64,000 bases of DNA from a candidate division BRC1 bacterium ADurb.Bin183. GTDB lineage: Bacteria > Sumerlaeota > Sumerlaeia > MWCT01. The stretch spans positions 62,001 through 126,000 of the forward strand of contig MWCT01000003.1 of the NCBI GenBank assembly GCA_002070185.1, given 5' to 3'. The position numbers and the translations under genes are program-made. The notes beneath the pieces are model-generated. The model saw only the letters and a program-made list of their open reading frames with translations. It was not told the origin of the DNA and did no database searches. Numbering within the stretch: the stretch's first letter is position 1; the number at the start of each line of letters is the position of its first letter. Shown here piece after piece: positions 10,856 to 64,000 of the stretch.

Positions 10856-11768
10856 AACGCCGCAGATAATCCCGAGCGCGCTGAACGTCAAAGTTGCCGG
10901 CGATATAATCTATAATACGCTCCGCAAAGGCGAGTTTATTTTCAATCGGCTGGTTAAAAAAAGACGCGCCGCGGCGCGATGGCACAAGCATCAAATGCCG
11001 AGCATCCACAAAATCAACCCCGTGAAAAAGATATAAAAGCGGAATGCCGCGCCGCAAATAGCCGTCCGCGCACCGTCGGAAATAATCAAACCCGCGCAAA
11101 AAAGCGACGCCAAAATGAAAGGGCAGCCGCAAAATCGGCGAAACGCTCACAGGGAATTCCCACAAATCCGCCGCCTTAACCCGATGCGGCGCAAGCAGTT
11201 TTAACCCGCCCGCAAATGTCCCGTATTGCCTTTTGCCGCTGAATATCCGCCCGCTGATGTAAGCATCCATCAACCTCATCGCCCCGCCCCACCAAGTCGG
11301 AAAGATTGATGAATCATAAAGAAATCCCAATTCAGCCGCCGCGTGCAAAACCCTCGCATCGGCATCATATCCCGGCGAGCGAAACCCGACAGGATAATGC
11401 TCTTTCCCCCATCCGCCTTTTTCCAAAAGGCTGGTAATTGCTGATTGGGCTTTGGAAATATTATCTCGGATTTCCAATTCGGAAAGACGCGTCAGACCCA
11501 GCGTGTGGTCAAATGAGTGATTGCCGATTTCATGACCGGCTTTTGCAATTTGTCCAATAACGGGCGCCTTCGCCGCAACTTGAGCGTCCCGCCCAACCAC
11601 AAAAAAAGAGGCGGGAACCCCCTTGCGGCGGAACAATTCAAGAAAGCGCAAAACGCCCTCTTCATAAACAGGGTCGCGCTCGATATAATCATCTTCGGGC
11701 AGTCCGTAACATTTACGAACCGCCCAAATGCCATCAAGGTCTATCTGGATAAAAGCGGCGGGATTCAA
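10839..11768 (-). CDS. Polysaccharide deacetylase (NodB-homology) family protein
   Basis: The 309-residue protein starts with IQIDLDGIW, the Asp-rich first motif of NodB-type deacetylases, and has GHEIGNHSFDHT, the metal-binding H-x3-H second motif, followed by VGFRSPGYD, the third motif. These support a metal-dependent N- or O-deacetylase acting on a carbohydrate. No signal peptide is present, so it may be cytoplasmic, as are deacetylases that act on lipid-linked sugars or nucleotide-sugar-derived intermediates. The start is TTG 11768, chosen because GGGAGA lies 5 bases upstream and because the first motif begins at residue 8. It is 26 bases downstream of acyP and probably co-transcribed with it. 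Substrate unknown; the LAB_N/GT39 genes nearby on the other strand make an envelope glycan plausible. Confidence 0.8.
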   Translation of the reverse strand: MNPAAFIQIDLDGIWAVRKCYGLPEDDYIERDPVYEEGVLRFLELFRRKGVPASFFVVGRDAQVAAKAPVIGQIAKAGHEIGNHSFDHTLGLTRLSELEIRDNISKAQSAITSLLEKGGWGKEHYPVGFRSPGYDADARVLHAAAELGFLYDSSIFPTWWGGAMRLMDAYISGRIFSGKRQYGTFAGGLKLLAPHRVKAADLWEFPVSVSPILRLPFHFGVAFLRGFDYFRRCADGYLRRGIPLLYLFHGVDFVDARHLMLVPSRRGASFFNQPIENKLAFAERIIDYIAGNFDVQRARDYLRRFNGSI

Positions 11769-11794
11769 AAAAATCTCCCAATTTTTTTAATCGC

Positions 11795-12067
11795 TCATGT
11801 TTCAAGTGTGAACGTGCGATAACCCTTCTCATCGTCGAACCATTCCGTCTCTACGTTTTTGACTTTGGCGCATATAGGACCTCTGCCTAAATCCTCAATT
11901 AATTGCTCCAACATTAGCTTGTCGCCTTCCGCCTCAACTTCCACATCCCCGTCAAAGCAATTGCGCACATATCCGCGCAGCCCGTATGCGGTCGCCTTGC
12001 GAATGACAAAATAACGGAAGCCCACGCCTTGCACAATGCCGCTCACCCTTGCCATGATTCGACTCAT
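11795..12067 (-). CDS. acyP: Acylphosphatase
   Basis: At 90 residues this is the standard length. It contains the acyl-phosphate loop GIVQGVGFRYFV with the catalytic Arg, and the strand GYVRNCFDGDVEVEAEG with the catalytic Asn. Acylphosphatases hydrolyse carboxyl-phosphate bonds such as acetyl phosphate or 1,3-bisphosphoglycerate in the cytoplasm. AGGAGT lies 6 bases upstream of ATG 12067. The deacetylase gene follows closely on the same strand. Confidence 0.95.
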   Translation of the reverse strand: MSRIMARVSGIVQGVGFRYFVIRKATAYGLRGYVRNCFDGDVEVEAEGDKLMLEQLIEDLGRGPICAKVKNVETEWFDDEKGYRTFTLET

Positions 12068-12245
12068 TTTGAACTCCTCTTCACAGGCAAATTAGCATGA
12101 TGATAATCGCAATCGTTCCCCGCGCGGGTCAAGCAATATCGCCCGTTCTAAATCAATCAAACGCTTGCGCCGCAATGGCGGCAACCTTTCCTCCGAACCG
12201 CCAATCCCCGCCCGCGTTTTATCTCAATTATTGCGTCATCAATCC

Positions 12246-12275
12246 TTGACATAAATCCAGCGCATTTTCTATGCA
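12246..12275 (+). promoter_or_regulatory. Candidate promoter of the alanine racemase gene
   Basis: A perfect TTGACA (12246-12251) is followed after 18 bases by TATGCA (12270-12275), a weak -10 match. It lies 40 bases before ATG 12316 in the 250-base region between divergent acyP and alr. Apart from this the region shows only a short GC-rich hairpin near 12165-12185. Confidence 0.35.
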
Positions 12276-12315
12276 TCCGATTAATTCTATTATTTTGCTC
12301 TGTCAGGAAAAACTC

Positions 12316-13437
12316 ATGATAATTTATCGCCCGACAATCGCCGCAATTTCGCTCGATGCCGTCAAACACAATATCCAAGCCATTCAAAAAAAAGTCGGCG
12401 CCGCATGCCAAGTTATGGCAGTGGTCAAGGCAAACGCCTACGGTCACGGCATGGCGCAGGTGGCGCAGGCATCGCTGGAAGCAGGCGCGGCGCGGATTGG
12501 AGTTGCCACAGTGGATGAGGCGGCGATTCTTCGCGATTTAAAAATCAAGGCGCCCATCCTTGTCATGGGACCCGCGCTCCTTGAACACGCGGAGTTCTTT
12601 ATAGCCAGAAACATCTCAGCCGCCGTCGGCTCGATAGAAGCAGCGCGCGCTTTCGGACGCGCGGCGCGCAAACTCGGCAAAAAGGCGCGCATCCACATCA
12701 AAACGGATACAGGCATGGGACGCTTTGGATTCTGGTGGGAAAACCTCGCCGCCCTCCTTCCCGAAATCAAAAAAATTCGCGGACTTCATCTTGAAGGATG
12801 CTTTACCCATTTTGCAACATCGGACATCGCCGATTACGCCTACACTAAATGGCAGCATGAAAATTTCAAAAAATTGCTCGATTCTGCCGCGCGGCAAAAG
12901 ATTCGCTTTGATATCATACACGCCGCAAATTCCGGCGCTATCATGCAACACCCGGAAACATATCACGACTGCGTCCGCGCAGGCGTCATGCTCTACGGCA
13001 TGCTCCCCGACCAAAAAACCAAGCCCACTGTCCCCATTAAACCTGTGATGACCTTGACCACGCGTCTGGTGGAAATCCGCCAACATCCCAAAGGGCGCTG
13101 CATCAGCTACGGCTGCACATGGCAGACGCCGCGCGCCTCGCGCATCGGCATCCTGCCCATCGGCTATGGCGACGGATATTCCCGTAAATTCTCCAACAAA
13201 GGACAGGTTCTCATCCGCGGACGCCGCGCCCCGATTGTCGGACGCGTCTGCATGGATCAGACGCTTGTTGATTTGAGCGCCATCCCCGAGGCGCAAATCG
13301 GCGACCGCGTCCTCCTTTGGGGCGAAAACGAACTCGGCGTCCTAAAAGTGGAAGAAGCCGCCAAATGGATGGGCACAATCACATACGAAGTTACCTGCGC
13401 GCTCGGCGCCCGCATCCCAAGAGTGTATATCAAATAG
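12316..13437 (+). CDS. alr: Alanine racemase
   Basis: The enzyme interconverts L- and D-alanine for peptidoglycan using PLP. The 373-residue product has the PLP-lysine motif VVKANAYGHG (Lys38). It also has the second catalytic base Tyr265 in ISYGC, at the same number as in the Geobacillus enzyme, and the active-site strands LPIGYGDGY and VGRVCMDQ. The frame is open from 12271, but ATG 12316 is preferred because AGGAAAA precedes it and because homologues begin near the YRPT...I-L-A strand. It stands alone: acyP is divergent upstream and the secretion operon follows after 250 bases. Confidence 0.95.
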   Translation: MIIYRPTIAAISLDAVKHNIQAIQKKVGAACQVMAVVKANAYGHGMAQVAQASLEAGAARIGVATVDEAAILRDLKIKAPILVMGPALLEHAEFFIARNISAAVGSIEAARAFGRAARKLGKKARIHIKTDTGMGRFGFWWENLAALLPEIKKIRGLHLEGCFTHFATSDIADYAYTKWQHENFKKLLDSAARQKIRFDIIHAANSGAIMQHPETYHDCVRAGVMLYGMLPDQKTKPTVPIKPVMTLTTRLVEIRQHPKGRCISYGCTWQTPRASRIGILPIGYGDGYSRKFSNKGQVLIRGRRAPIVGRVCMDQTLVDLSAIPEAQIGDRVLLWGENELGVLKVEEAAKWMGTITYEVTCALGARIPRVYIK

Positions 13438-25457: not shown

Positions 25458-26678
25458 TTGGATGAGCCGATAGTCCATAAGATTGAAACGCTTTCCCTTG
25501 CCGATGCCCAGCGCGAGATGGAACGCATCGGCGTCCACCCCGATGGCGTGCGAATCATGGCGCCCAAAGCCGTCTTTAGCGTCCTTAAAATTTATCGCCT
25601 TTCTCCCTATCATGCCAACGTTCTCAAACAGGAGATGCTCTCCATCGGCGCCGAAGCCGCCACAGCCGCCGGCTGCATTGACTGCTCCCGAGCGGAAAGC
25701 GATGTCATCCTCATGGGCACGCTTTCCCATTACCGCAAACTTTTTGAAAAGCTAAAACAGCAGCCGCCATCTTTCCATCCGCTGGCGCAAAAAATACTCG
25801 AAGCCGCGCAAACGCCATCCCCCAGTTTTAACCTCAACTGGAATTTCGGCAACCGCAAAATTTCGTTCAACCAACGCCGCATCCTCATCATGGGCATCCT
25901 CAACGTTACCCCTGATTCATTCAGCGACGGCGGGCAATTCTTCAAAACAAAAGACGCTGTCGCCCAAGCGTTAAAAATGGAGGAAGCTGGAGCGGATATT
26001 TTGGACATCGGCGGCGAATCGAGCCGCCCGGGCAGCCAGCCCGTCTCCGATGATGAAGAAATGGTGCGCGTCCTCCCCGTCCTCCAAGAGCTGCTCGGCA
26101 AAACCGCTTTCCCCATTTCCATTGACACATACAAAGCGGATTTAGCGGAGGCGGCAATCAGCATGGGCGCGGCGATAGTCAACGACATCACCGCCTTGCG
26201 CAGGGATCCCCGCATGGCGTCTCTTTGCGCGGAAAGAAAACTCGGCGTGGTTTTAATGCATATGAAAGGCGAGCCCAAATCTATGCAGGATGCGCCCCAT
26301 TATGAGGACGTCGTTGCCGAGGTCTCTGATTTTTTTGAAGAGCGCATCAAAGCCGCCATTGCCGCCGGCATCCAGCGCGACGCCATCGTCCTCGACCCCG
26401 GCACCGGCATCGCATTCGGCAAAAATCTGGAACATAACATCGCCCTCATGCGCGCCATCCCTCATTTCATCGAGCGGCATCAGCGCCCGATTATGCTCGG
26501 CGTCTCACGCAAAAGATTCATCGGGGAACTCACCGGAAAAAATGTGCGAGACAGACTCGGCGGAACAATCGCCGCCGCCGCCTTTTGCGCGCTCAAGGGC
26601 GCTTCCATTCTCCGCGTTCATGACGTTGCGGAATGCCGCGACGCTATTAAGGTTGTTCAAGCCTTGAATGATTTATGA
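25458..26678 (+). CDS. folP: Dihydropteroate synthase with N-terminal extension
   Basis: The enzyme condenses 6-hydroxymethyl-dihydropterin diphosphate with p-aminobenzoate in folate synthesis. The 406-residue product carries the two family signatures GILNVTPDSFSDGG (from about residue 146) and DIGGESSRPGS, plus DPGTGIAFGK and GVSRKRF. Residues 1-140 are an extra domain absent from the usual 270-residue enzyme. Similar extensions occur in FolP of some anaerobes, but I do not recognise its function. The frame opens at an in-frame stop at 25443, so the start must be TTG 25458 or an internal codon. Confidence 0.9.
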   Translation: MDEPIVHKIETLSLADAQREMERIGVHPDGVRIMAPKAVFSVLKIYRLSPYHANVLKQEMLSIGAEAATAAGCIDCSRAESDVILMGTLSHYRKLFEKLKQQPPSFHPLAQKILEAAQTPSPSFNLNWNFGNRKISFNQRRILIMGILNVTPDSFSDGGQFFKTKDAVAQALKMEEAGADILDIGGESSRPGSQPVSDDEEMVRVLPVLQELLGKTAFPISIDTYKADLAEAAISMGAAIVNDITALRRDPRMASLCAERKLGVVLMHMKGEPKSMQDAPHYEDVVAEVSDFFEERIKAAIAAGIQRDAIVLDPGTGIAFGKNLEHNIALMRAIPHFIERHQRPIMLGVSRKRFIGELTGKNVRDRLGGTIAAAAFCALKGASILRVHDVAECRDAIKVVQALNDL

Positions 26679-26694
26679 TAAAGGGATGCTTTTC

Positions 26695-28476
26695 ATGAAA
26701 AAAATTAATTTATTTATTACCGCAGTTATCCTTCTGGGTTTGCCGCTTGCCGCCGTCCAGCCATCCGCGGCGATGGAATTGAATCTCCCTATGCCCCTTG
26801 AAATTAAAGGCTTCGACCCATCGCAGGCAAACGACCTCTATTCGATGACCGCCCTTATGCAGATTTACGAGCCGCTTTATCAATATGCGTATTTAGAGCG
26901 CCCGTATAAACCGGAGCCCCTCATTGCGGAATCGCTGCCGGAAATCTCCGCCGATAAACTCGTTTACACAATCAAACTCAAAAAAGGCGTCCGCTTTCAG
27001 GATGATAAATGCTTCAAGGAAACAAAAGGCAAAGGGCGGGAACTGACCGCACAAGACTTTATCTTCTCCTTCAAGCGCATCGCCGATAAAAAGGTCAACT
27101 CCAACGGATGGTGGATATTCCGCGACCACATCATCGGGCTGGATGAGTTTTACGAAAATTCCGGCGAGGCGAAGGATATGAAATATTACGACACGCCGGT
27201 GGAAGGGCTCGCCGCGCCCGACCCGCACACGCTGGTCATCCGCCTGAAAAAACCCTACCCCCAACTCTCTTGCATACTCACCATGCCCTACACATGCGCC
27301 GTCCCGCGCGAAGCGGTTGAATTTTACGGCGAGGAATTTTTGAACCACCCGATTGGGACCGGACCTTACAAACTTGAAAAATCTATTCGCGCCTCCAAAA
27401 TCACATACGTCCGCAACTCAACCTTCCGCGGCGAAACATACCCTTCAAAAGGCGCGCCGGAAGATGAACAAAACGGAATGCTCGCCGATGCGGGAAAACC
27501 CGTCCCTTTTGCTGACCGGCTCACATTTCACATCATCAAAGAATCATCCGTCATGTGGCTGCAATTCCTCTCCGGCAACCTTGACCGCGCCGGCATCCCC
27601 AAGGACAGCTACGACGCCGCCATTGACGAGAATAAAAATCTGCGCCCCAAACTTGCTGAAAAAGGCATACAACTCCTGATTACGCCGGATCTCGACCTCA
27701 CCTATGTCGCCTTCAACATGGAAGACTCTATCGTCGGCAAAAGCCCCGCACTGCGCCAAGCGCTCAGCCTCTGCCTCGACCGCGAACAACTCATCCACCA
27801 CTTCTATAATAACCACGCCATCGAGGCAAAAGGTCCCATCCCGCCCGGTCTGGCGGGATACGACCCCGACCTCCAAAATCCCTTTGCGCGCTTTGACATG
27901 GCAAAGGCAAAAGAAAAAATGGCGGAAGCGCGGCGCGAACTCGGTCTTGCCCCAGACTCGCCCATCGAACTCACATACGACTCCCAGAACAATGACATCA
28001 CATCGCGCCAGATAGACGAATTTTATACGGACGGTTTCAAGCAGCTGGGCGTTAAAATCAATTACAACGTCAACACTTGGCCCCAGTTCCTCGACCGCAT
28101 CAAAAATAAAAAAGGGCAGGTCTGGGGACAGGCGTGGGGCGCCGATTACCCCGACGCCGAAAACTTCCTACAACTCCTCTACGGTCCAAACGCCTCCCCC
28201 GGCGATAACAACGCCAATTACAAAAACCCCGAATTTGATAAACTCTACGAACAAATGAAACTGATGGAGGACTCCCCAGAGCGGCGGGAAATCATCAAAA
28301 AAATGGTCGCCATCGTCATCAAAGATTCACCGTGGATTTTTTGCACGCACCGCATCCGATTCAACGTCAACCACGGCTGGCTCAAAAATTACACCTACCA
28401 CAGCCTCGGCAGTAATTATTGCAAATATTACCGCATTGATGAAACAGCAAAAAAAGAACTCAAAAAGAAACTGTGA
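26695..28476 (+). CDS. Peptide/oligopeptide ABC transporter substrate-binding protein (SBP_bac_5)
   Basis: 593 residues from ATG 26695 (AAGGG 9 bases upstream). It has a cleavable signal peptide ending at PSAA and no lipobox cysteine, so it should be periplasmic and soluble. The family-5 fold is shown by FDPSQANDLYSMTAL, VRFQDD, LTAQDFIFSFKRI, HPIGTGPYKL, ALSLCLDREQ and the terminal half. These proteins capture peptides or other oligomers for DppBC/YejBE-type permeases. No permease is adjacent; candidates are the YejB/YejE-like genes at 56628-58782. It overlaps the next gene by 4 bases. Confidence 0.88.
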   Translation: MKKINLFITAVILLGLPLAAVQPSAAMELNLPMPLEIKGFDPSQANDLYSMTALMQIYEPLYQYAYLERPYKPEPLIAESLPEISADKLVYTIKLKKGVRFQDDKCFKETKGKGRELTAQDFIFSFKRIADKKVNSNGWWIFRDHIIGLDEFYENSGEAKDMKYYDTPVEGLAAPDPHTLVIRLKKPYPQLSCILTMPYTCAVPREAVEFYGEEFLNHPIGTGPYKLEKSIRASKITYVRNSTFRGETYPSKGAPEDEQNGMLADAGKPVPFADRLTFHIIKESSVMWLQFLSGNLDRAGIPKDSYDAAIDENKNLRPKLAEKGIQLLITPDLDLTYVAFNMEDSIVGKSPALRQALSLCLDREQLIHHFYNNHAIEAKGPIPPGLAGYDPDLQNPFARFDMAKAKEKMAEARRELGLAPDSPIELTYDSQNNDITSRQIDEFYTDGFKQLGVKINYNVNTWPQFLDRIKNKKGQVWGQAWGADYPDAENFLQLLYGPNASPGDNNANYKNPEFDKLYEQMKLMEDSPERREIIKKMVAIVIKDSPWIFCTHRIRFNVNHGWLKNYTYHSLGSNYCKYYRIDETAKKELKKKL

Positions 28477-54289: not shown

Positions 54290-56587
54290 TCATAAAATGT
54301 TGCGGCAGGCAAGCGCGGAGATGCACAGAGCAAGCCGCTTACGCAAATCGTGAATGCCGATATAGGAGGCGACTGGCAGCGTCCATTGCAACAGCGCCAT
54401 CCAATAAGGAATCATGCTCGTCTCAAATAATGTGGTCACATCGGCATAATGGCGCAGACGGCGAATAACCGCATGGCATTTTTTCACCATCGGGTCGCCG
54501 CCCCTGTAATCAAACGCCGGCTCATCCGATAGAGAACGCTGCCGCAACAACCCCTGCGCATATTCGAGCAACGGTTGCAAATCATCCCCGCTCTCCATGC
54601 GCGGCAACTCAATCAGCATAATCGCCTCCAGACGCGCAAAATCCGAAACAATATTCCGCAGCGCCGTCTCGGAAAAATCAATGACATAAATATTCTCGCG
54701 CTCATCAAGCAGAACGTTTTGCAGATTCAAATCCCCGTGCGTGATGCCGGAATACCAAAGCGTCTGCTCCTCCGCCCGTTTCGGATAGATATGTTTAAGA
54801 ACGTAATACGGGTTGGGCAGCGTTGTTTTGAGCTCGGGGAAATCAATATTTTTCTCATCCAACGAAACGCCCATTTCCGAAACGGCATGCTCCAATAGGC
54901 GCGGGAATAAAATCGCCGACGGCGTGTGCTCGGCAAAAAGGCGCAGAGGCTCCCAACGCGGCTGCCCATACCACGGCTTTAAAATGTTTGTAAAAAGGCG
55001 GTCGAATAACGGCAAAAATTCCTCAATCGGACGGCTCATAAAATGCTCCCGCAGCCAGACAAGCCGGCTCTCCGGTCCCGAAACGCCGAGGAAATTGTAT
55101 GTAATTCCTGCCCATCTGCCTTGCGAGGCGCTGCCTAAAATCACCGCGCCGTTATTGAGTATGTATTTTTGAACATAATTGCGGCAGGCGTTTTCCTCGC
55201 TGCCGATATTGGCAAGCGAGCCGATTTTGCACACAGTCGGAAGCATACGCCTCCCTTCCGCATCGCAGCTCACGGCTGAAAATGTGGTAGCGGTAAAACC
55301 GCCGCTGAGCTTTTTGAGGAGAACGCGGCTGGAGCCTTCATAAAGGCGGCGGATAATCATATCCCATTCATCGGGGATGTCAGCGCCGCAGGGCGGGTTG
55401 ACCCATTCAATTTGCAAACGTTTCTGCGCGGCGGGGCGAATGCTTTGCAGCGGATAGAGCCAGATGCGCGCGCGTAAAATTTTCGATTCCTCCGCCGGAT
55501 ATAAAATCTGCTCCGGTCCTTCGCCGATGAATTCATGAAGGGCAATCTCCGCAGGGTCGTCGCCGACATCCGGCATGGCGGCGTCTTTGAAAAAAGCCCC
55601 AACAGCCCGCAAGGCATCCGGCGTGGTTTTCCCAGATTCCGGAATCATTCCCACAATCAGGAAAACGCCGCGTTCGGGCAGGGCAACCGATTTGAGACGA
55701 CCGGCTTTCAAGTCCGCGCTGTGGGCATAATATGCGCCGGCAACCTCCGGAACTTCCGCAAGAAGGATAAACCCCAGCGGCAAGTTTGCGGCGCCGACGG
55801 CATCGCAATAAGCGCGCAAATCGTTTTTCAAAATCTCAAAGGTTGTCGGTTTTTGCGCCGGCAGCTCCGCCATTTTCTGCGGCGCGCCGGCAAGGCTCGC
55901 CCCGGAAATGATGAAGAGCGGAGTTTCATCAGGTTTTTTGGCGGCAATAAAATCCGGCAGATTATTACCGTCCGCTGGAATGACGCCCGCAAAACAACTC
56001 GCCGTTATCATCAAACCGAGCGCCTCCGCCGCCTGAACGCGGTCGCCGCCGAATCCGCCGACACCAAATGAAAAACCCAACTCAGAGAGCCGCACAGAAA
56101 TCAACGCGCAATCCGCTGACGGCGCTTGCGCTGCCTCGCCCCAGATATCCAAATGAGAAACCTGCGCCGCCGCACCGGCATCCTTTATCAGATAGTCGAG
56201 TCCGGAGGGCGCCCGCCAAAGAGCCGCCGGCGAAACGCCGCTGGCTTTTTGAATTTGTTCATAGGCTTCCTCCTCGCCGCCCGCTGCGCGGAATATTCTA
56301 AGAAGCCCAGCCATCTCAAGAACTGCCATCACATCGGGATTCATACCGAAGAGGAATAAATCCCCGCCTTTGGATTTCACCCTTTTTGCCGCTACCACAA
56401 GCGAGCGAATGCCGGCGCTGGATAAAAATTCCACCTCGGCAAAATCAAGCATCCAAAAAGGCTCGGCGTGCTGCGCTGCAAGATGGTTGAATTCTTTATC
56501 TGCTACCGACGCCCCGAATCCATCAAACCGCCCCGCCAAACGCAAAAGCGGAAAATTCCCCTTCTCCTCAACTTTAATCTCCAGCAT
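54290..56587 (-). CDS. STAS domain fused to an aminoglycoside-phosphotransferase-like kinase
   Basis: The 765-residue protein has an N-terminal STAS (anti-anti-sigma) domain of about 100 residues, with the phosphorylatable serines at 56-57 in FLSSAGIRSLVVAAKR. A middle region of about 105-470 includes FSFGVGGFGGDRVQAAEALG and is not recognised. The C-terminal kinase-like domain contains a Gly-rich loop region (KLSGGFTATTFS) and a probable Lys strand (VCKIG). The catalytic loop HGDLNLQNVLL (His617) and the metal Asp637 in VIDFSE follow. This form resembles TCAD9/APH-like kinases found in ternary conflict and signalling systems. A kinase joined to its STAS substrate-type domain is unusual. It follows the YejE-like gene by 40 bases. 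Confidence 0.75.
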   Translation of the reverse strand: MLEIKVEEKGNFPLLRLAGRFDGFGASVADKEFNHLAAQHAEPFWMLDFAEVEFLSSAGIRSLVVAAKRVKSKGGDLFLFGMNPDVMAVLEMAGLLRIFRAAGGEEEAYEQIQKASGVSPAALWRAPSGLDYLIKDAGAAAQVSHLDIWGEAAQAPSADCALISVRLSELGFSFGVGGFGGDRVQAAEALGLMITASCFAGVIPADGNNLPDFIAAKKPDETPLFIISGASLAGAPQKMAELPAQKPTTFEILKNDLRAYCDAVGAANLPLGFILLAEVPEVAGAYYAHSADLKAGRLKSVALPERGVFLIVGMIPESGKTTPDALRAVGAFFKDAAMPDVGDDPAEIALHEFIGEGPEQILYPAEESKILRARIWLYPLQSIRPAAQKRLQIEWVNPPCGADIPDEWDMIIRRLYEGSSRVLLKKLSGGFTATTFSAVSCDAEGRRMLPTVCKIGSLANIGSEENACRNYVQKYILNNGAVILGSASQGRWAGITYNFLGVSGPESRLVWLREHFMSRPIEEFLPLFDRLFTNILKPWYGQPRWEPLRLFAEHTPSAILFPRLLEHAVSEMGVSLDEKNIDFPELKTTLPNPYYVLKHIYPKRAEEQTLWYSGITHGDLNLQNVLLDERENIYVIDFSETALRNIVSDFARLEAIMLIELPRMESGDDLQPLLEYAQGLLRQRSLSDEPAFDYRGGDPMVKKCHAVIRRLRHYADVTTLFETSMIPYWMALLQWTLPVASYIGIHDLRKRLALCISALACRNIL

Positions 56588-56627: not shown

Positions 56628-57696
56628 TCACTCATATTTCGCATACTGCCGCGGGTCAAAGGCTTCGCGCACAGACTCGCCCACCAGCGTCACCAGCACC
56701 AACGTAACGGAGAGTGCGGTAAAGGGCGCAATCGCCAGCCAGATTTTCGAGCGGTTCTGCACCTGAAGCGCCTGATCTATAATCTATAAGCTCGCCCCAA
56801 CTCGGCGTGGGCGGCGGAACGCCGTAGCCCAAATAATCCAGCCCCGTCAGCGCGCCTATCGCCGCCACAATCGCAAAAGGCGTGAATGTGATGAGCGGCG
56901 CAAGGCAATTGGGGAGCAGATGCTTAAAGATGATGCGCGCCTGCGAGGCGCCGTAAGAGCGCGCCGCAAGGCAATACTGCCGCGTCTTTTCCCGATACAT
57001 CTCCGTGCGCATATAAAACGTAATCTGCATCCACCAAAAAAGCGCCATCAAAAAAAGAAGCAGCGTAAAACTCGGCGTGAAAAACGTGCCCATGATGATG
57101 ACAATGTATAAAAAAGGCAGCGTATCCCAGATTTCGATTAACCGCTGCGTGATGATGTCGAACCTGCCCGCAAGGTAGCCCTGCAGCGAACCGACAGCCG
57201 TTCCGACGGTCTGCGAAACCAACACCAGCCCCAACGCGAAAAAGATGGAGACTCTAAAACCGTAAAGCAACCGCGCAAAAACATCCCGCCCCTGCGAATC
57301 CGTGCCTAACCAATGGCGGCGGTCGGGCGGATTCGGCGGCGGTTCTTGATACGCGCTGAAATCATTCTCGTAAGGATTAAAAGGAATCGGCGGCATCAAC
57401 GCCCAGTTCGGCGACCCTTTGAACTGCTCCTTCATAGCGCGGTAATCCGCTTCTGCATCGTCAAACCCGAACTCATCTTTCTGCCCGAATTCAGACATGC
57501 TGTGGAACTTGAACGTCGGAAAATAAAACCGCCCCTCATAGCGGACGATGATAGCGCGGCTGTTGGCAATGTAATTTGAAAAAAGAGAAAAAAATGTCAG
57601 CGTTAAAAGCGCAATAAGCGAATAATACCCGCGCTTGATGCGCCGAAAACGCCCGATTCGCTTCCGCGTGATTGGATTCAATCTAAAAAATCTCAT
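56628..57696 (-). pseudogene. YejE/DppC-like peptide ABC permease, frameshifted near the 3' end
   Basis: The frame from ATG 57696 reads a 346-residue product of the DppC/YejE type: N-terminal membrane helix, HWLGTDSQGRDVFARLLYG and the EAA-like loop SYGASQARIIFKHLLPN. After PSWGELID the frame is broken by a 7-base tandem duplication (56775-56788). It then runs into junk residues, ending at 56656. Removing one copy restores the expected DQALQVQNRSKIWLAIAPF...QYAKYE end and a stop at 56628. The last membrane helix is lost in the frame as read, so function is doubtful unless frameshifting or an assembly error corrects it. Confidence 0.85.
56775..56788. repeat. 7-base tandem duplication causing the frameshift
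   Basis: ATCTATA occurs twice in tandem on the plus strand (TATAGAT twice on the coding strand). The second copy shifts the permease frame by +1 within the codons for GELID. Slippage in such a short direct repeat could be reversible. Confidence 0.9.
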
Positions 57697-57699
57697 CGC

Positions 57700-58782
57700 T
57701 CACTCAAACCTCACTCTGGGATCAACAAACGCCACGCACAAATCAGAAAGCAAATTCCCCAAAAGCATCAGCACACTGCCGATAACAATCATACCCAGCA
57801 CAACCGGATAATCCCGCGATACGATGGATTCGTAAACTAAAAGCCCGATCCCTTTGATGTTGAACACCCGCTCGATGAGGACGGAGCCCGTCAAGATGAG
57901 CGAGATATTATGCCCAAAGCTTGTGGCAATCGGAATCAGCGAATTGCGCAGGGCGTGGACAAACACCGCCCGACGCCACGAAAGACCCTTTGCCAGCGCC
58001 GTCTTCACATAATCCGCGCCCATATTCTCCATCAAACTGTTCTTCATCAACATCGTCATCACCGCAAATGAGCCGACCATATAACAGATAAGCGGCAAAA
58101 CGGCGTGATGAGCAATATCAAGCGCCTTGCCCATATTTGAAAGACTCGCAAAATTCTCCCCGCAAAAACCGCCCAGCGGAAACCAATCGCGCTTCACAGC
58201 AAAAAACACAAGCATAACTGCGCCCAATGCATACCCCGGAATCGCATAGCCGATAAAAATGAAAAACGACGTGATATTATCCAACAAAGCGCGATGGCGG
58301 AGCGCCTTCAAAATCCCCAACGGGATGCAGACAATATACGTCAGAACCGTTGTTACAATACCGTAAAAGATAGAGACCGGCAAACGCTGGGTTATAATCT
58401 CCCGCACAGGCATCGTATAGCGGAAAGAATCCCCCAAATCCAACCGCGCCAGATTCCCGACCCATCGCCCATAACGAATATAAACCGGCATATCAAATCC
58501 GTAATACTCCTTTAAAATCTTCATCTGATCTTCCGGAATGGAAAGCTGGATGCGCTCGCCTCTGCCCGAAACGCCCGCCTCGCCCGCTCCGCCGCCCGCC
58601 AGTTGCAGCCGAATCTGGTCAATCGGACCGCCCGGCACAAACTGACATATCGCAAAAGTCGCAACCGTGATGCCCAAAAGCGTCGGCAGCATCAAAAGCA
58701 TCCGCCGGATGACGTAATTTCTGAGAGCCTTCCCGCGTGAAATTTCCAAAACGCGCCCATCCTTCATCCAAACTTTAATCAA
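57700..58782 (-). CDS. YejB/DppB-like peptide ABC permease
   Basis: The 360-residue protein has six membrane helices and the DppB-type pattern: RRMLLMLPTLLGITVATF, FVPGGPIDQI, and the EAA loop YVKTALAKGLSWRRAVFVHALRN. The insertion QLAGGGAGEAGVSGRGERIQL after the first helix is typical of YejB. It works with the YejE-type permease, starting 3 bases downstream, to import peptides. An ATPase and binding protein are missing locally; the binding protein at 26695-28476 is a candidate. Confidence 0.93.
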   Translation of the reverse strand: MIKVWMKDGRVLEISRGKALRNYVIRRMLLMLPTLLGITVATFAICQFVPGGPIDQIRLQLAGGGAGEAGVSGRGERIQLSIPEDQMKILKEYYGFDMPVYIRYGRWVGNLARLDLGDSFRYTMPVREIITQRLPVSIFYGIVTTVLTYIVCIPLGILKALRHRALLDNITSFFIFIGYAIPGYALGAVMLVFFAVKRDWFPLGGFCGENFASLSNMGKALDIAHHAVLPLICYMVGSFAVMTMLMKNSLMENMGADYVKTALAKGLSWRRAVFVHALRNSLIPIATSFGHNISLILTGSVLIERVFNIKGIGLLVYESIVSRDYPVVLGMIVIGSVLMLLGNLLSDLCVAFVDPRVRFE

Positions 58783-58913
58783 TTATATGCGGCGGCGTTT
58801 TTCATTTTTCAAGGAACAAAATCTTTTACGCAAAATTTTGATTAGATATTGACAACCCATCGCGCCGTTATCATGTCAATTTTACCTATGATGAAAGGTT
58901 GCAAAAAAAATTT

Positions 58914-60374
58914 ATGAAGCATCTGGCAACCCTCCGGATAAAGGCGGACGTGAAACTCATCCCCGCCGCCAAAAGCCTTGCGCGCGAAACGGCGCGCCTT
59001 TTTTTCCCGCAGGAGCAGGACATCCTCAACCTTGAACTCATCACGGAGGAATCCTGCCTCAACGTTATCCAGCACGCCTTTGAGCCGAATGAAAACGGCG
59101 AATACATCCTTGAAATCATACGCGAGCCCGGCGCCTTTGTCATCGCCATAGAAGACCGCGGCATCCCGTTTGACTTCCGCCGCATTCAGGAAAAAAACGA
59201 GCCCGGTATCGGCATGGCGTTCATGAAAAAATTCACAGACGAAATCCGATTCTTTTATATGGGCAGACGCGGCAAACGCATCGAACTCGCCAAAAACATC
59301 GCCTATAAAGATTCCGATTCTTTCCTGACGGAACAAGAACGCGCCCCGGCGGATGCAAAGCCGGACGTCTCCACGCCCGTTTCTATACGCATCATGCAAC
59401 CCGACGAGGCGGTGGAGCTCATGAAATGCATCTATCGGGTTTATGGATATTCTTACACGTATGAGGATGTCTACAAACCGGAAAAAATATCCGAACTGCT
59501 CGCCAGCGGCATGGCAACCGCATGTGTTGCCGTCACGCCGGAAAAACGCATCGTGGGGCACCTTGCCCTCATCAAAGACGCCCCGGAAGACCTTGTCCCC
59601 GAATCGGCGGAGGCGGTGGTTGACCCGCTTTTCCGCGGGCGCGGCATCTTTGAAAAGATGAAGGATTTCATGCGCCAGCAGTCTTTATCGCTCGGATTCA
59701 AAGGGCTTTATAGCCGCGCCGTCACAGTGCATCCCGCCTCCCAAAAGGGCAACCTCAAACTCGGCGCAAAAGAAACCGGCATCATCATCGCCAACTCGCC
59801 CCCCTCCTCCGTGTTCAAAAAGATGAGCCAGACCGATGAGCATCACCGCCGAAGCGTGGTGCTTTATTATATGCCTATCAAGCCCGATGAGCCGACGGCT
59901 GTTTACCCGCCGCTGCATCACAAATCTATGATTGCTAAAATTTATGAGCATAATCAACTGCCGCGGAAAATCGAGGCGTTCAACGCCGCCGCTAACGGCG
60001 TTGCCATCTCCGAACGTTCGCGCATGGACGTCCGCATCAAAGACGAAGTCGGGCTTGCCTTTTTGAACGTTATGGAATTTGGAAAGGATTTCTCCGACCT
60101 GCTCCTCTTCCGCTTGAAAAACCTGTGCCAGCGCAAAATCGAGGTCATCATACTCGACCTGCCGCTAACCCACCCCGCCACCGCCGTCTTCGCCCCCGCG
60201 GCGGAGATGCTCGGCTTTTTCTTTTGCGGCGTCATCCCCAACAAAAATAACGGCGACATCTTGCGCCTTGAATACCTGAACAATGCCGCATTCGACCCGT
60301 CAACGGTTGTCCTCGTCTCCGATTTCTCGAAAGAGATTTTCGATTACATCCTCGCCGCCTCCGGGCTGGCTTAA
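58914..60374 (+). CDS. HATPase (anti-sigma-factor-type) domain fused to a GNAT acetyltransferase
   Basis: 486 residues from ATG 58914. Residues about 1-130 are an RsbW/SpoIIAB-type serine kinase domain with EESCLNVIQHAF (N-box), IEDRGIPFD (G1) and PGIGMAFMKKF (G2). Residues about 155-310 are a GNAT-like domain (PLFRGRGIFEKMKDFMRQQ). The last 150 residues are unrecognised. Such a kinase normally binds a sigma factor and phosphorylates a STAS protein; here a STAS-kinase fusion lies about 2 kb away on the opposite strand. The acetyltransferase may modify an unknown partner. It diverges from yejB across 130 bases. Confidence 0.75.
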   Translation: MKHLATLRIKADVKLIPAAKSLARETARLFFPQEQDILNLELITEESCLNVIQHAFEPNENGEYILEIIREPGAFVIAIEDRGIPFDFRRIQEKNEPGIGMAFMKKFTDEIRFFYMGRRGKRIELAKNIAYKDSDSFLTEQERAPADAKPDVSTPVSIRIMQPDEAVELMKCIYRVYGYSYTYEDVYKPEKISELLASGMATACVAVTPEKRIVGHLALIKDAPEDLVPESAEAVVDPLFRGRGIFEKMKDFMRQQSLSLGFKGLYSRAVTVHPASQKGNLKLGAKETGIIIANSPPSSVFKKMSQTDEHHRRSVVLYYMPIKPDEPTAVYPPLHHKSMIAKIYEHNQLPRKIEAFNAAANGVAISERSRMDVRIKDEVGLAFLNVMEFGKDFSDLLLFRLKNLCQRKIEVIILDLPLTHPATAVFAPAAEMLGFFFCGVIPNKNNGDILRLEYLNNAAFDPSTVVLVSDFSKEIFDYILAASGLA

Positions 60375-62176: not shown

Positions 62177-64000
62177 TCAGACCGCGTTGCACGGAAAGAG
62201 CAGACGCACGCGCGTGCCGCGTCCCGGCTCGCTGGAGATGGCAATCTCCCCGCCGATATTCTGCATGATGCCGTAGGTGACAAAGAGTCCCAAACCGGAA
62301 GACTCGCCCTCTTTTTTCGTTGTGAAAAATGGGTCGAATATATTTTTCATAATCTCTTTTGGAATGCCGCCGCCGTTGTCTTCGATGACCACTTCGATAA
62401 AGCGCCGATTCTGGGCATCCGGCATAAGATGCCGCGTTCGCACTTTTATCTCGCCGCCGCCGCTGATAGCGTCCTCCGCATTGCGCAAGATGTTCAAAAT
62501 CACCTGCCGTATTTGATCCGGCGAAAGCAGCGTTTTGGGAACGTTCGGGTCAAAATCAAGCGAGACGCTGATGCCGTGCCGCTCAAGCGATTTAGCCATC
62601 AACTCAACGAGTTTGCCCGCCTCATAATTTATATCCGTCGGGGCGGGCGTCGGAGCGACGGGGCGATACAAATCCTGCAAAGTGCGCACAATCCGCGCAA
62701 TGCGATCCAGCTCCTCGTTGATATAAGCAAGCGGCTGCATGTTCAGCCCGAGCGATTCAAGCCGCGCCTGATAGCGGCGGACGTCGTCTCTAAAAAGGCG
62801 CAGGTAATTTTTGATAATGCCCAGCGGGTTGTTGATTTCATGGGCGATGCTGGCGGCGAGTTTGCCGCTGGCGGCGTATTTTTCCGCAAGCACAAGGTTG
62901 TAATGCGCATCTTCCAATTGAAGCGTGCGCTCTTTTACCTTCTCTTCGAGTTCATCCGCAAATCGTTTGACTCTCGTAAAAAGGCGGCTATGCTCCACCG
63001 CCACAGATAGCGCCCCCGCCACTTGCTCAATCATAGACATTTCGCGACCGGTGTAAAAATCCGCCTGCTTATGCCCCAAAATCATCGCGCCGAGGATGCC
63101 CGATGTGGAAATCAACGGAAGCGCCAGATAGGAGCGGATGCCGCGCCGCAAAAGGTCAATCTCCTCCTGATAGCGGCTGCTGCGGCTTGCAATGTCGCCC
63201 ACCGTCGCCGCCTTGCCCGTGCGCAGGATTAACTCCGCCACCGAGCCGTCCACCGGCATCGGCGGGTTTGCCTCCCATGAGGATTCAATCTGGGGCCAGG
63301 AAAGCTCCGGCGGCGGCAGAATAACCGCAAGGCGATATTCGGCGGCGTTTTCCCGCAGGAGGGCAATCGCGGCGTAATCGCAATCCACAACCTTTTTCAA
63401 CTCATCCGAAAGCACTTGAAAGATGTTATCCAGATTCAAGTCGGAATTGACCGCCTGCGTTATGCTCTGAATGAGCATAATCTGGTTGGCTTTTTCCTCC
63501 ACGTTGGCAAGGGCGCCTTTCAAATCTCCATACGTCTTTTGAAGCTCTTGCGCCATGCTGTTGAATCCATCAGCAAGGTCCTCGATTTCATCGCCTGTGC
63601 GAAGCTTCACGCGGGCGTTCAAATTCCCCTTTGCAATATCATGCAAACCCTTTTGCAATGTCTTAATAGGGACGACTATTTTATTAGATAGGTAAAGCCC
63701 CAAAAGCAACATCGCCGCCACCATGAGCACCCCTAAAAGCGACATGCGCCAAAGGAGCAGATTCACCACAACGACCACATCGCTCACGTCGAACACCATA
63801 AAGATGAACCACTCAAAATTGCTGCGCCTATCCGCCCATGCCATCCGCAGAAGGCTGATGGAGGAATACGCCACAATATTTTTTGCGTTGACCGCCTCCA
63901 ATGTGATAAACCACCCGCCATATTGGCTGCGCATTTGCGCCGCGTGCGATTCCAAAACGGGGGAAAAAACGGCGGCGTTGCGCGTTGCCAAATGAAGGGC
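62177..64000 (-). CDS. Sensor histidine kinase with HAMP and GAF domains, 5' end outside the window
   Basis: The frame is open to base 64000, so the N-terminus is missing. The part present shows the end of an extracytoplasmic sensing region and a membrane helix (LLGVLMVAAMLLLGLYLS). A HAMP domain, a GAF domain (about 190-330 of the visible part), a HisKA dimer with AHEINNPLG and a HATPase domain follow. The last carries the N-box NILRNAEDAI, EDNGGGIP, DPFFTTK and GLGLFV. It autophosphorylates on the H-box histidine. No response regulator is visible. It converges with the metallophosphoesterase gene, ending 14 bases from it. Confidence 0.9.
   Translation of the reverse strand, partial: ALHLATRNAAVFSPVLESHAAQMRSQYGGWFITLEAVNAKNIVAYSSISLLRMAWADRRSNFEWFIFMVFDVSDVVVVVNLLLWRMSLLGVLMVAAMLLLGLYLSNKIVVPIKTLQKGLHDIAKGNLNARVKLRTGDEIEDLADGFNSMAQELQKTYGDLKGALANVEEKANQIMLIQSITQAVNSDLNLDNIFQVLSDELKKVVDCDYAAIALLRENAAEYRLAVILPPPELSWPQIESSWEANPPMPVDGSVAELILRTGKAATVGDIASRSSRYQEEIDLLRRGIRSYLALPLISTSGILGAMILGHKQADFYTGREMSMIEQVAGALSVAVEHSRLFTRVKRFADELEEKVKERTLQLEDAHYNLVLAEKYAASGKLAASIAHEINNPLGIIKNYLRLFRDDVRRYQARLESLGLNMQPLAYINEELDRIARIVRTLQDLYRPVAPTPAPTDINYEAGKLVELMAKSLERHGISVSLDFDPNVPKTLLSPDQIRQVILNILRNAEDAISGGGEIKVRTRHLMPDAQNRRFIEVVIEDNGGGIPKEIMKNIFDPFFTTKKEGESSGLGLFVTYGIMQNIGGEIAISSEPGRGTRVRLLFPCNAV

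What the first reader, a model, noticed from the sequence alone, without database searches (positions are those of the whole stretch)
56775..56788. 7-base tandem duplication disrupts the YejE-like permease
ATCTATA is repeated. The frame as read loses the last transmembrane helix and gives a false end at 56656; deleting one copy restores the family-typical C-terminus to 56628. This could be phase variation, a real recent mutation, or an assembly error.
Basis: seen in the sequence. Interest (0 to 1): 0.6.

Follow-up and report, generated by a model that had tools for sequence, protein, structure and literature searches.

The report
Recent 7-base frameshift in peptide permease
A seven-base stutter in the DNA breaks the tail end of an otherwise normal peptide-import gene in an uncultured environmental bacterium; it looks like a very recent ordinary mutation (or an assembly slip) rather than a new kind of genetic switch.

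Summary
ATCTATA is perfectly doubled at 56775-56788, inside a YejE/OppC-like ABC permease gene on the minus strand. The frame as written ends at 56656 with a 41-residue polar tail; the other frame after the repeat carries the hydrophobic last helix and ends at 56628. The repeat itself is no rarer than chance: 35 period-7 doublings in 444 kb of this genome, 35.2 expected. Its position is what matters. In 42 of 44 distinct related sequences spanning the site the frame runs straight through with exactly seven bases fewer; the other two differ by six, whole codons. The tail keeps a protein-coding substitution pattern in the old frame (9/1/23 changes by codon position against the nearest relative), so the break is very young. 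A codon-usage scan blind to repeats ranked this site first of three flags; the other two lie opposite apparently intact genes. No relative has the repeat, so an evolved phase-variation switch is unlikely. Best reading: a recent spontaneous slippage duplication that inactivates or cripples the permease. An assembly error remains the main rival; raw reads were not available. Low interest.

The parts
56775..56781 (+). ATCTATA, one copy of the 7-base tandem repeat (reads TATAGAT on the coding minus strand)
56782..56788 (+). ATCTATA, the other copy; a 15th base of the period-7 array is at 56789
56656..57696 (-). YejE/OppC-like ABC permease gene as written, 346 aa, ending in a 41-residue non-family tail after the repeat
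56628..56780 (-). rest of the permease coding region in the other frame: 50 residues with the last hydrophobic helix and the conserved GESxREAFDP C-terminus, stop at 56628-56630
57700..58782 (-). YejB/OppB-like partner permease, 360 aa, complete over the Pfam profile
54290..56587 (-). next gene downstream: STAS domain joined to a TCAD9/phosphotransferase-like domain, 765 aa, intact; probably cotranscribed (inferred from spacing only)

Best explanation
A recent spontaneous 7-base tandem duplication, most simply by replication slippage, shifted the frame of a YejE/OppC-like peptide permease gene in the sequenced population of a Sumerlaeota-like bacterium. Shown: the seven extra bases, the frame change, the loss of the last hydrophobic helix and conserved C-terminus from the encoded product, and the undecayed state of the old tail. 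Inferred: that the DNA is real, that slippage made it, and that the product is non-functional. The loss could be neutral, because a second intact OppB/OppC pair exists in the genome, or favoured, because losing YejE is a known route to resistance against peptide antibiotics that enter through this importer.
For: Exactly 7 extra bases against relatives: 48 of 50 loci that could be scored (42 of 44 distinct) show no excess and an unbroken frame; the other two differ by minus six, whole codons. The tail keeps codon-position bias 9/1/23 against the nearest relative, like the upstream blocks of the same gene (4/2/25 next to it). The codon-usage scan of 444 kb gave 3 flags with this site first; the other two lie opposite the apparently intact genes at L075:10870-12757 and window 62177-63991. 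The encoded tail has a best 19-residue hydropathy of 0.25 against 2.32 for the tail in the other frame. A second complete OppB/OppC pair is at contig C5. Frameshifts in YejE or YejF arose in E. coli under corramycin (PMC10099666, passages seen).
Against: No read counts and no second genome of the species: the nearest relatives held are of another genus in the same family. The scan found only about a quarter of simulated 7-base duplications (162 of 666), so the rate of similar breaks in this assembly is poorly bounded. A young mutation must be at or near majority in the sample to appear in a consensus, which needs drift, a sweep or a clonal sample.
Confidence: 0.58

Rival explanations
1. Assembly or consensus error: two contig ends or read overlaps sharing 7 bases were joined without collapsing the overlap, or a local consensus slip doubled them. 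The real gene is intact.
For: The old-frame tail shows no decay at all; the gene is unbroken in every relative scored; no other convincing frame break was found in 444 kb, so an isolated break in a conserved gene is suspicious.
Against: No excess of period-7 doublings in the genome (35 observed, 35.2 expected), as a systematic artefact would give; no gap or N at the site; an isolated exact heptamer doubling is not a typical base-calling error (general knowledge).
Confidence: 0.33
2. Phase variation: the heptamer copy number toggles between one and two and switches the permease on and off in the population.
For: Perfect adjacent copies can in principle be lost by slippage. Spontaneous sequence duplications in capsule genes causing phase variation in pneumococcus are on record (Waite 2001 and 2003, titles seen in the reference list of PMC4022640).
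Against: Only 2.1 copies, whereas the contingency tracts that I recall have many; not present in any relative scored; not enriched genome-wide; in Xenorhabdus lrp, mutants that included 26-116 bp tandem duplications were reported as not phase-variable (PMC6786866, passages seen).
Confidence: 0.06
3. Recoding: the ribosome slips +1 at the rare AGA codon inside the repeat, or hops between the two identical GAT codons, so that full-length permease is still made.
For: The duplication leaves matched GAT codons seven bases apart; AGA is rare here, 4.1 per 1000 codons; the tail is undecayed.
Against: No stable RNA structure around the site (z +1.25, 183 of 200 shuffles fold at least as well); the arrangement is absent from all relatives scored; youth explains the undecayed tail more simply.
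Confidence: 0.03

Closest known systems
Spontaneous short tandem duplications in pneumococcal capsule genes (cap3A, cap8E, tts, wchA; gene name cap3A recalled, others)
   Same: an exact duplication inside an open reading frame that disrupts the gene
   Different: those are titled as high-frequency phase variation; here no second allele is known and no relative has the repeat
YejE/YejF frameshift mutants of E. coli selected by corramycin (PMC10099666, passages seen)
   Same: frameshift in the same type of permease gene
   Different: laboratory selection in E. coli; here no selection is known, and the exact mutations of that paper were not seen
Simple-sequence-repeat contingency loci of Haemophilus and Neisseria (search listing only)
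   Same: short unit whose length is not a multiple of three, inside a gene
   Different: two copies only, not conserved, not enriched

Membership tests
Microcin C / YejE permease (NCBIfam NF011596, PRK15021) | score over the curated cut-off of 439 bits | tested here: not met
   251.7 bits over residues 5-304, best of 17 families listed; so YejE-like by nearest profile, not a filed member
Binding-protein-dependent permease domain (Pfam PF00528) | score over the gathering cut-off | tested here: met
   76.9 bits against 26.4
Binding-protein-dependent permease domain (Pfam PF00528) | complete domain including the last helix | tested here: not met
   profile positions 1-154 of 184 in the frame as written; the intact partner YejB-like protein covers 2-183
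Phase-variable simple-sequence repeat | tract of many copies of a short unit | tested here: not met
   2.1 copies
Phase-variable simple-sequence repeat | both alleles present in a population and interconverting | not testable with these tools
   no reads; one genome of the species held
Programmed ribosomal frameshifting or hopping | conserved shift site | tested here: not met
   seven extra bases absent from all 50 loci scored, 44 distinct
Programmed ribosomal frameshifting or hopping | stimulatory RNA structure | tested here: not met
   z +1.25 for the 131-base stretch folded

The most novel reading that the evidence does not exclude
The two-copy allele is tolerated because the ribosome bypasses one heptamer by hopping between the identical GAT codons that any such duplication creates, so that tandem duplication and translational bypassing together make a leaky, heritable dimmer for an importer that also lets peptide antibiotics in.
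Probability: 0.02. Interest if true: 0.6.

Novelty: new member of a known kind. Interest (0 to 1): 0.12.

Why it matters
It is a clean example of how a very young frameshift can be recognised in a metagenome assembly: an exact short duplication, an undecayed old frame, and intact relatives. If real, it records a recent loss of one peptide importer in a wild population, which might reflect exposure to peptide antibiotics. It does not point to a new system.

Tried and rejected
Rarity of the repeat itself: rejected as evidence, since 35 period-7 doublings were observed in 444 kb against 35.2 expected and 6 against 4.0 in the window.

A generally error-ridden assembly: not supported, three flags in 444 kb, two of them opposite apparently intact genes. 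But the scan detects only 162 of 666 simulated 7-base duplications. Looser thresholds gave 10 and 21 flags with this site still first in both; those further flags were not inspected.

RNA structure for recoding: none. A second copy of the same gene that would make it dispensable: none; the only other OppC-like match is 34% identical, though it is part of an intact pair. Literature: no paper held all five terms of the slippage search; the microhomology search gave nothing bacterial in its 3 listed papers; the searches for YejE with frameshift, tandem duplication with phase variation, heptanucleotide repeat and Sumerlaeota gave context but no report of this event. I make no wider claim about print.

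Full report
What is there. On the plus strand 56775-56788 reads ATCTATAATCTATA; the period-7 array runs to 56789. It is the only exact occurrence of this 14-mer in the 3.41 Mb, 39-contig genome that holds the window. It lies in a minus-strand gene that follows a YejB/OppB-like permease gene. As written the gene runs from 57696 to 56656, 346 residues. Its nearest NCBIfam profile is the microcin C permease YejE (251.7 bits, below the curated cut-off of 439), matching residues 5-304 and stopping at the repeat; Pfam PF00528 matches profile positions 1-154 of 184, whereas the partner covers 2-183. After the repeat, the other frame encodes 50 residues with a strongly hydrophobic stretch and the conserved C-terminus, with the stop at 56628-56630.

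Is it more than chance? The repeat alone is not: 6 period-7 doublings in the window against a mean of 4.0 in 40 simulations, and 35 in 444 kb of this genome against 35.2 expected. Its effect is not chance. I compared the two parts of the protein, kept apart, with 52 loci from relatives. Two (L015, L016) could not be scored. Of the other 50, 48 have no excess between the two parts and two (L013, L014) have minus six, a whole number of codons. By sequence context these are 44 distinct, 42 and 2. The window has exactly seven more. Thirty-seven of the loci come from the named genome collection, and the closest of these are titled Candidatus Sumerlaeota.

How old is it? Against the nearest relative the tail differs at 9, 1 and 23 first, second and third codon positions of the old frame, with the block just upstream at 4, 2 and 25. 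The tail was therefore under selection in the old frame until very recently, is still read in it, or was never broken. A codon-usage scan that did not look for repeats, run on the window plus 19 stretches of the same genome (444 kb), gave three flags, and this site scored first, with the break placed at 56777. The flag in L075 lies opposite the apparently intact genes at 10870-12757, and the one at 63318 opposite the gene at 62177-63991. At these thresholds the scan finds 162 of 666 simulated 7-base duplications, so the absence of other flags is only weak evidence of a clean assembly.

What would it do? The encoded tail has no hydrophobic helix (best 19-residue mean 0.25, against 2.32 for the other frame). 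Loss of the last helix should cripple the permease; this is inference from the family. The genome has one other OppB/OppC-like pair, intact at C5, two substrate-binding proteins, one of them in this window, and four ATPase matches, so the transporter parts are dispersed. In Sinorhizobium, YejABEF and BacA independently import phazolicin (PMC10128002, passages seen), and in E. coli frameshifts in YejE or YejF arose under corramycin (PMC10099666, passages seen). Loss under peptide-antibiotic exposure is thus plausible, but nothing here shows it.

Cause. A recent slippage duplication is the simplest reading (0.58). An assembly error is the main rival (0.33): it explains the undecayed tail equally well, and only reads can settle it. 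Phase variation (0.06) lacks a multi-copy tract, conservation and enrichment. Recoding (0.03) lacks a conserved site and an RNA structure. Short duplications that disrupt genes are known in pneumococcal capsule loci (titles seen in PMC4022640), and tandem duplications of 26-116 bp in Xenorhabdus lrp, where the mutants were reported as not phase-variable (PMC6786866, passages seen). This is therefore an ordinary event of a known kind.

Noticed in passing
54290-56587 (-) and 58899-60374 (+): The permease pair is flanked by a STAS-TCAD9/phosphotransferase-like fusion protein downstream and a divergent HATPase_c_2 (anti-sigma-kinase-like) protein upstream, which look like partner-switching regulators.
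   Followed up: no
26668-28476 (+): An intact SBP_bac_5 peptide-binding protein lies about 30 kb from the permease pair; the ATPase matches are on other contigs, so the importer parts are scattered.
   Followed up: partly
L063:12427-12448: The only exact doubling with a unit of 9 to 40 bases not divisible by three found in the 444 kb sample, an 11-base unit; whether it lies in a gene was not checked.
   Followed up: no
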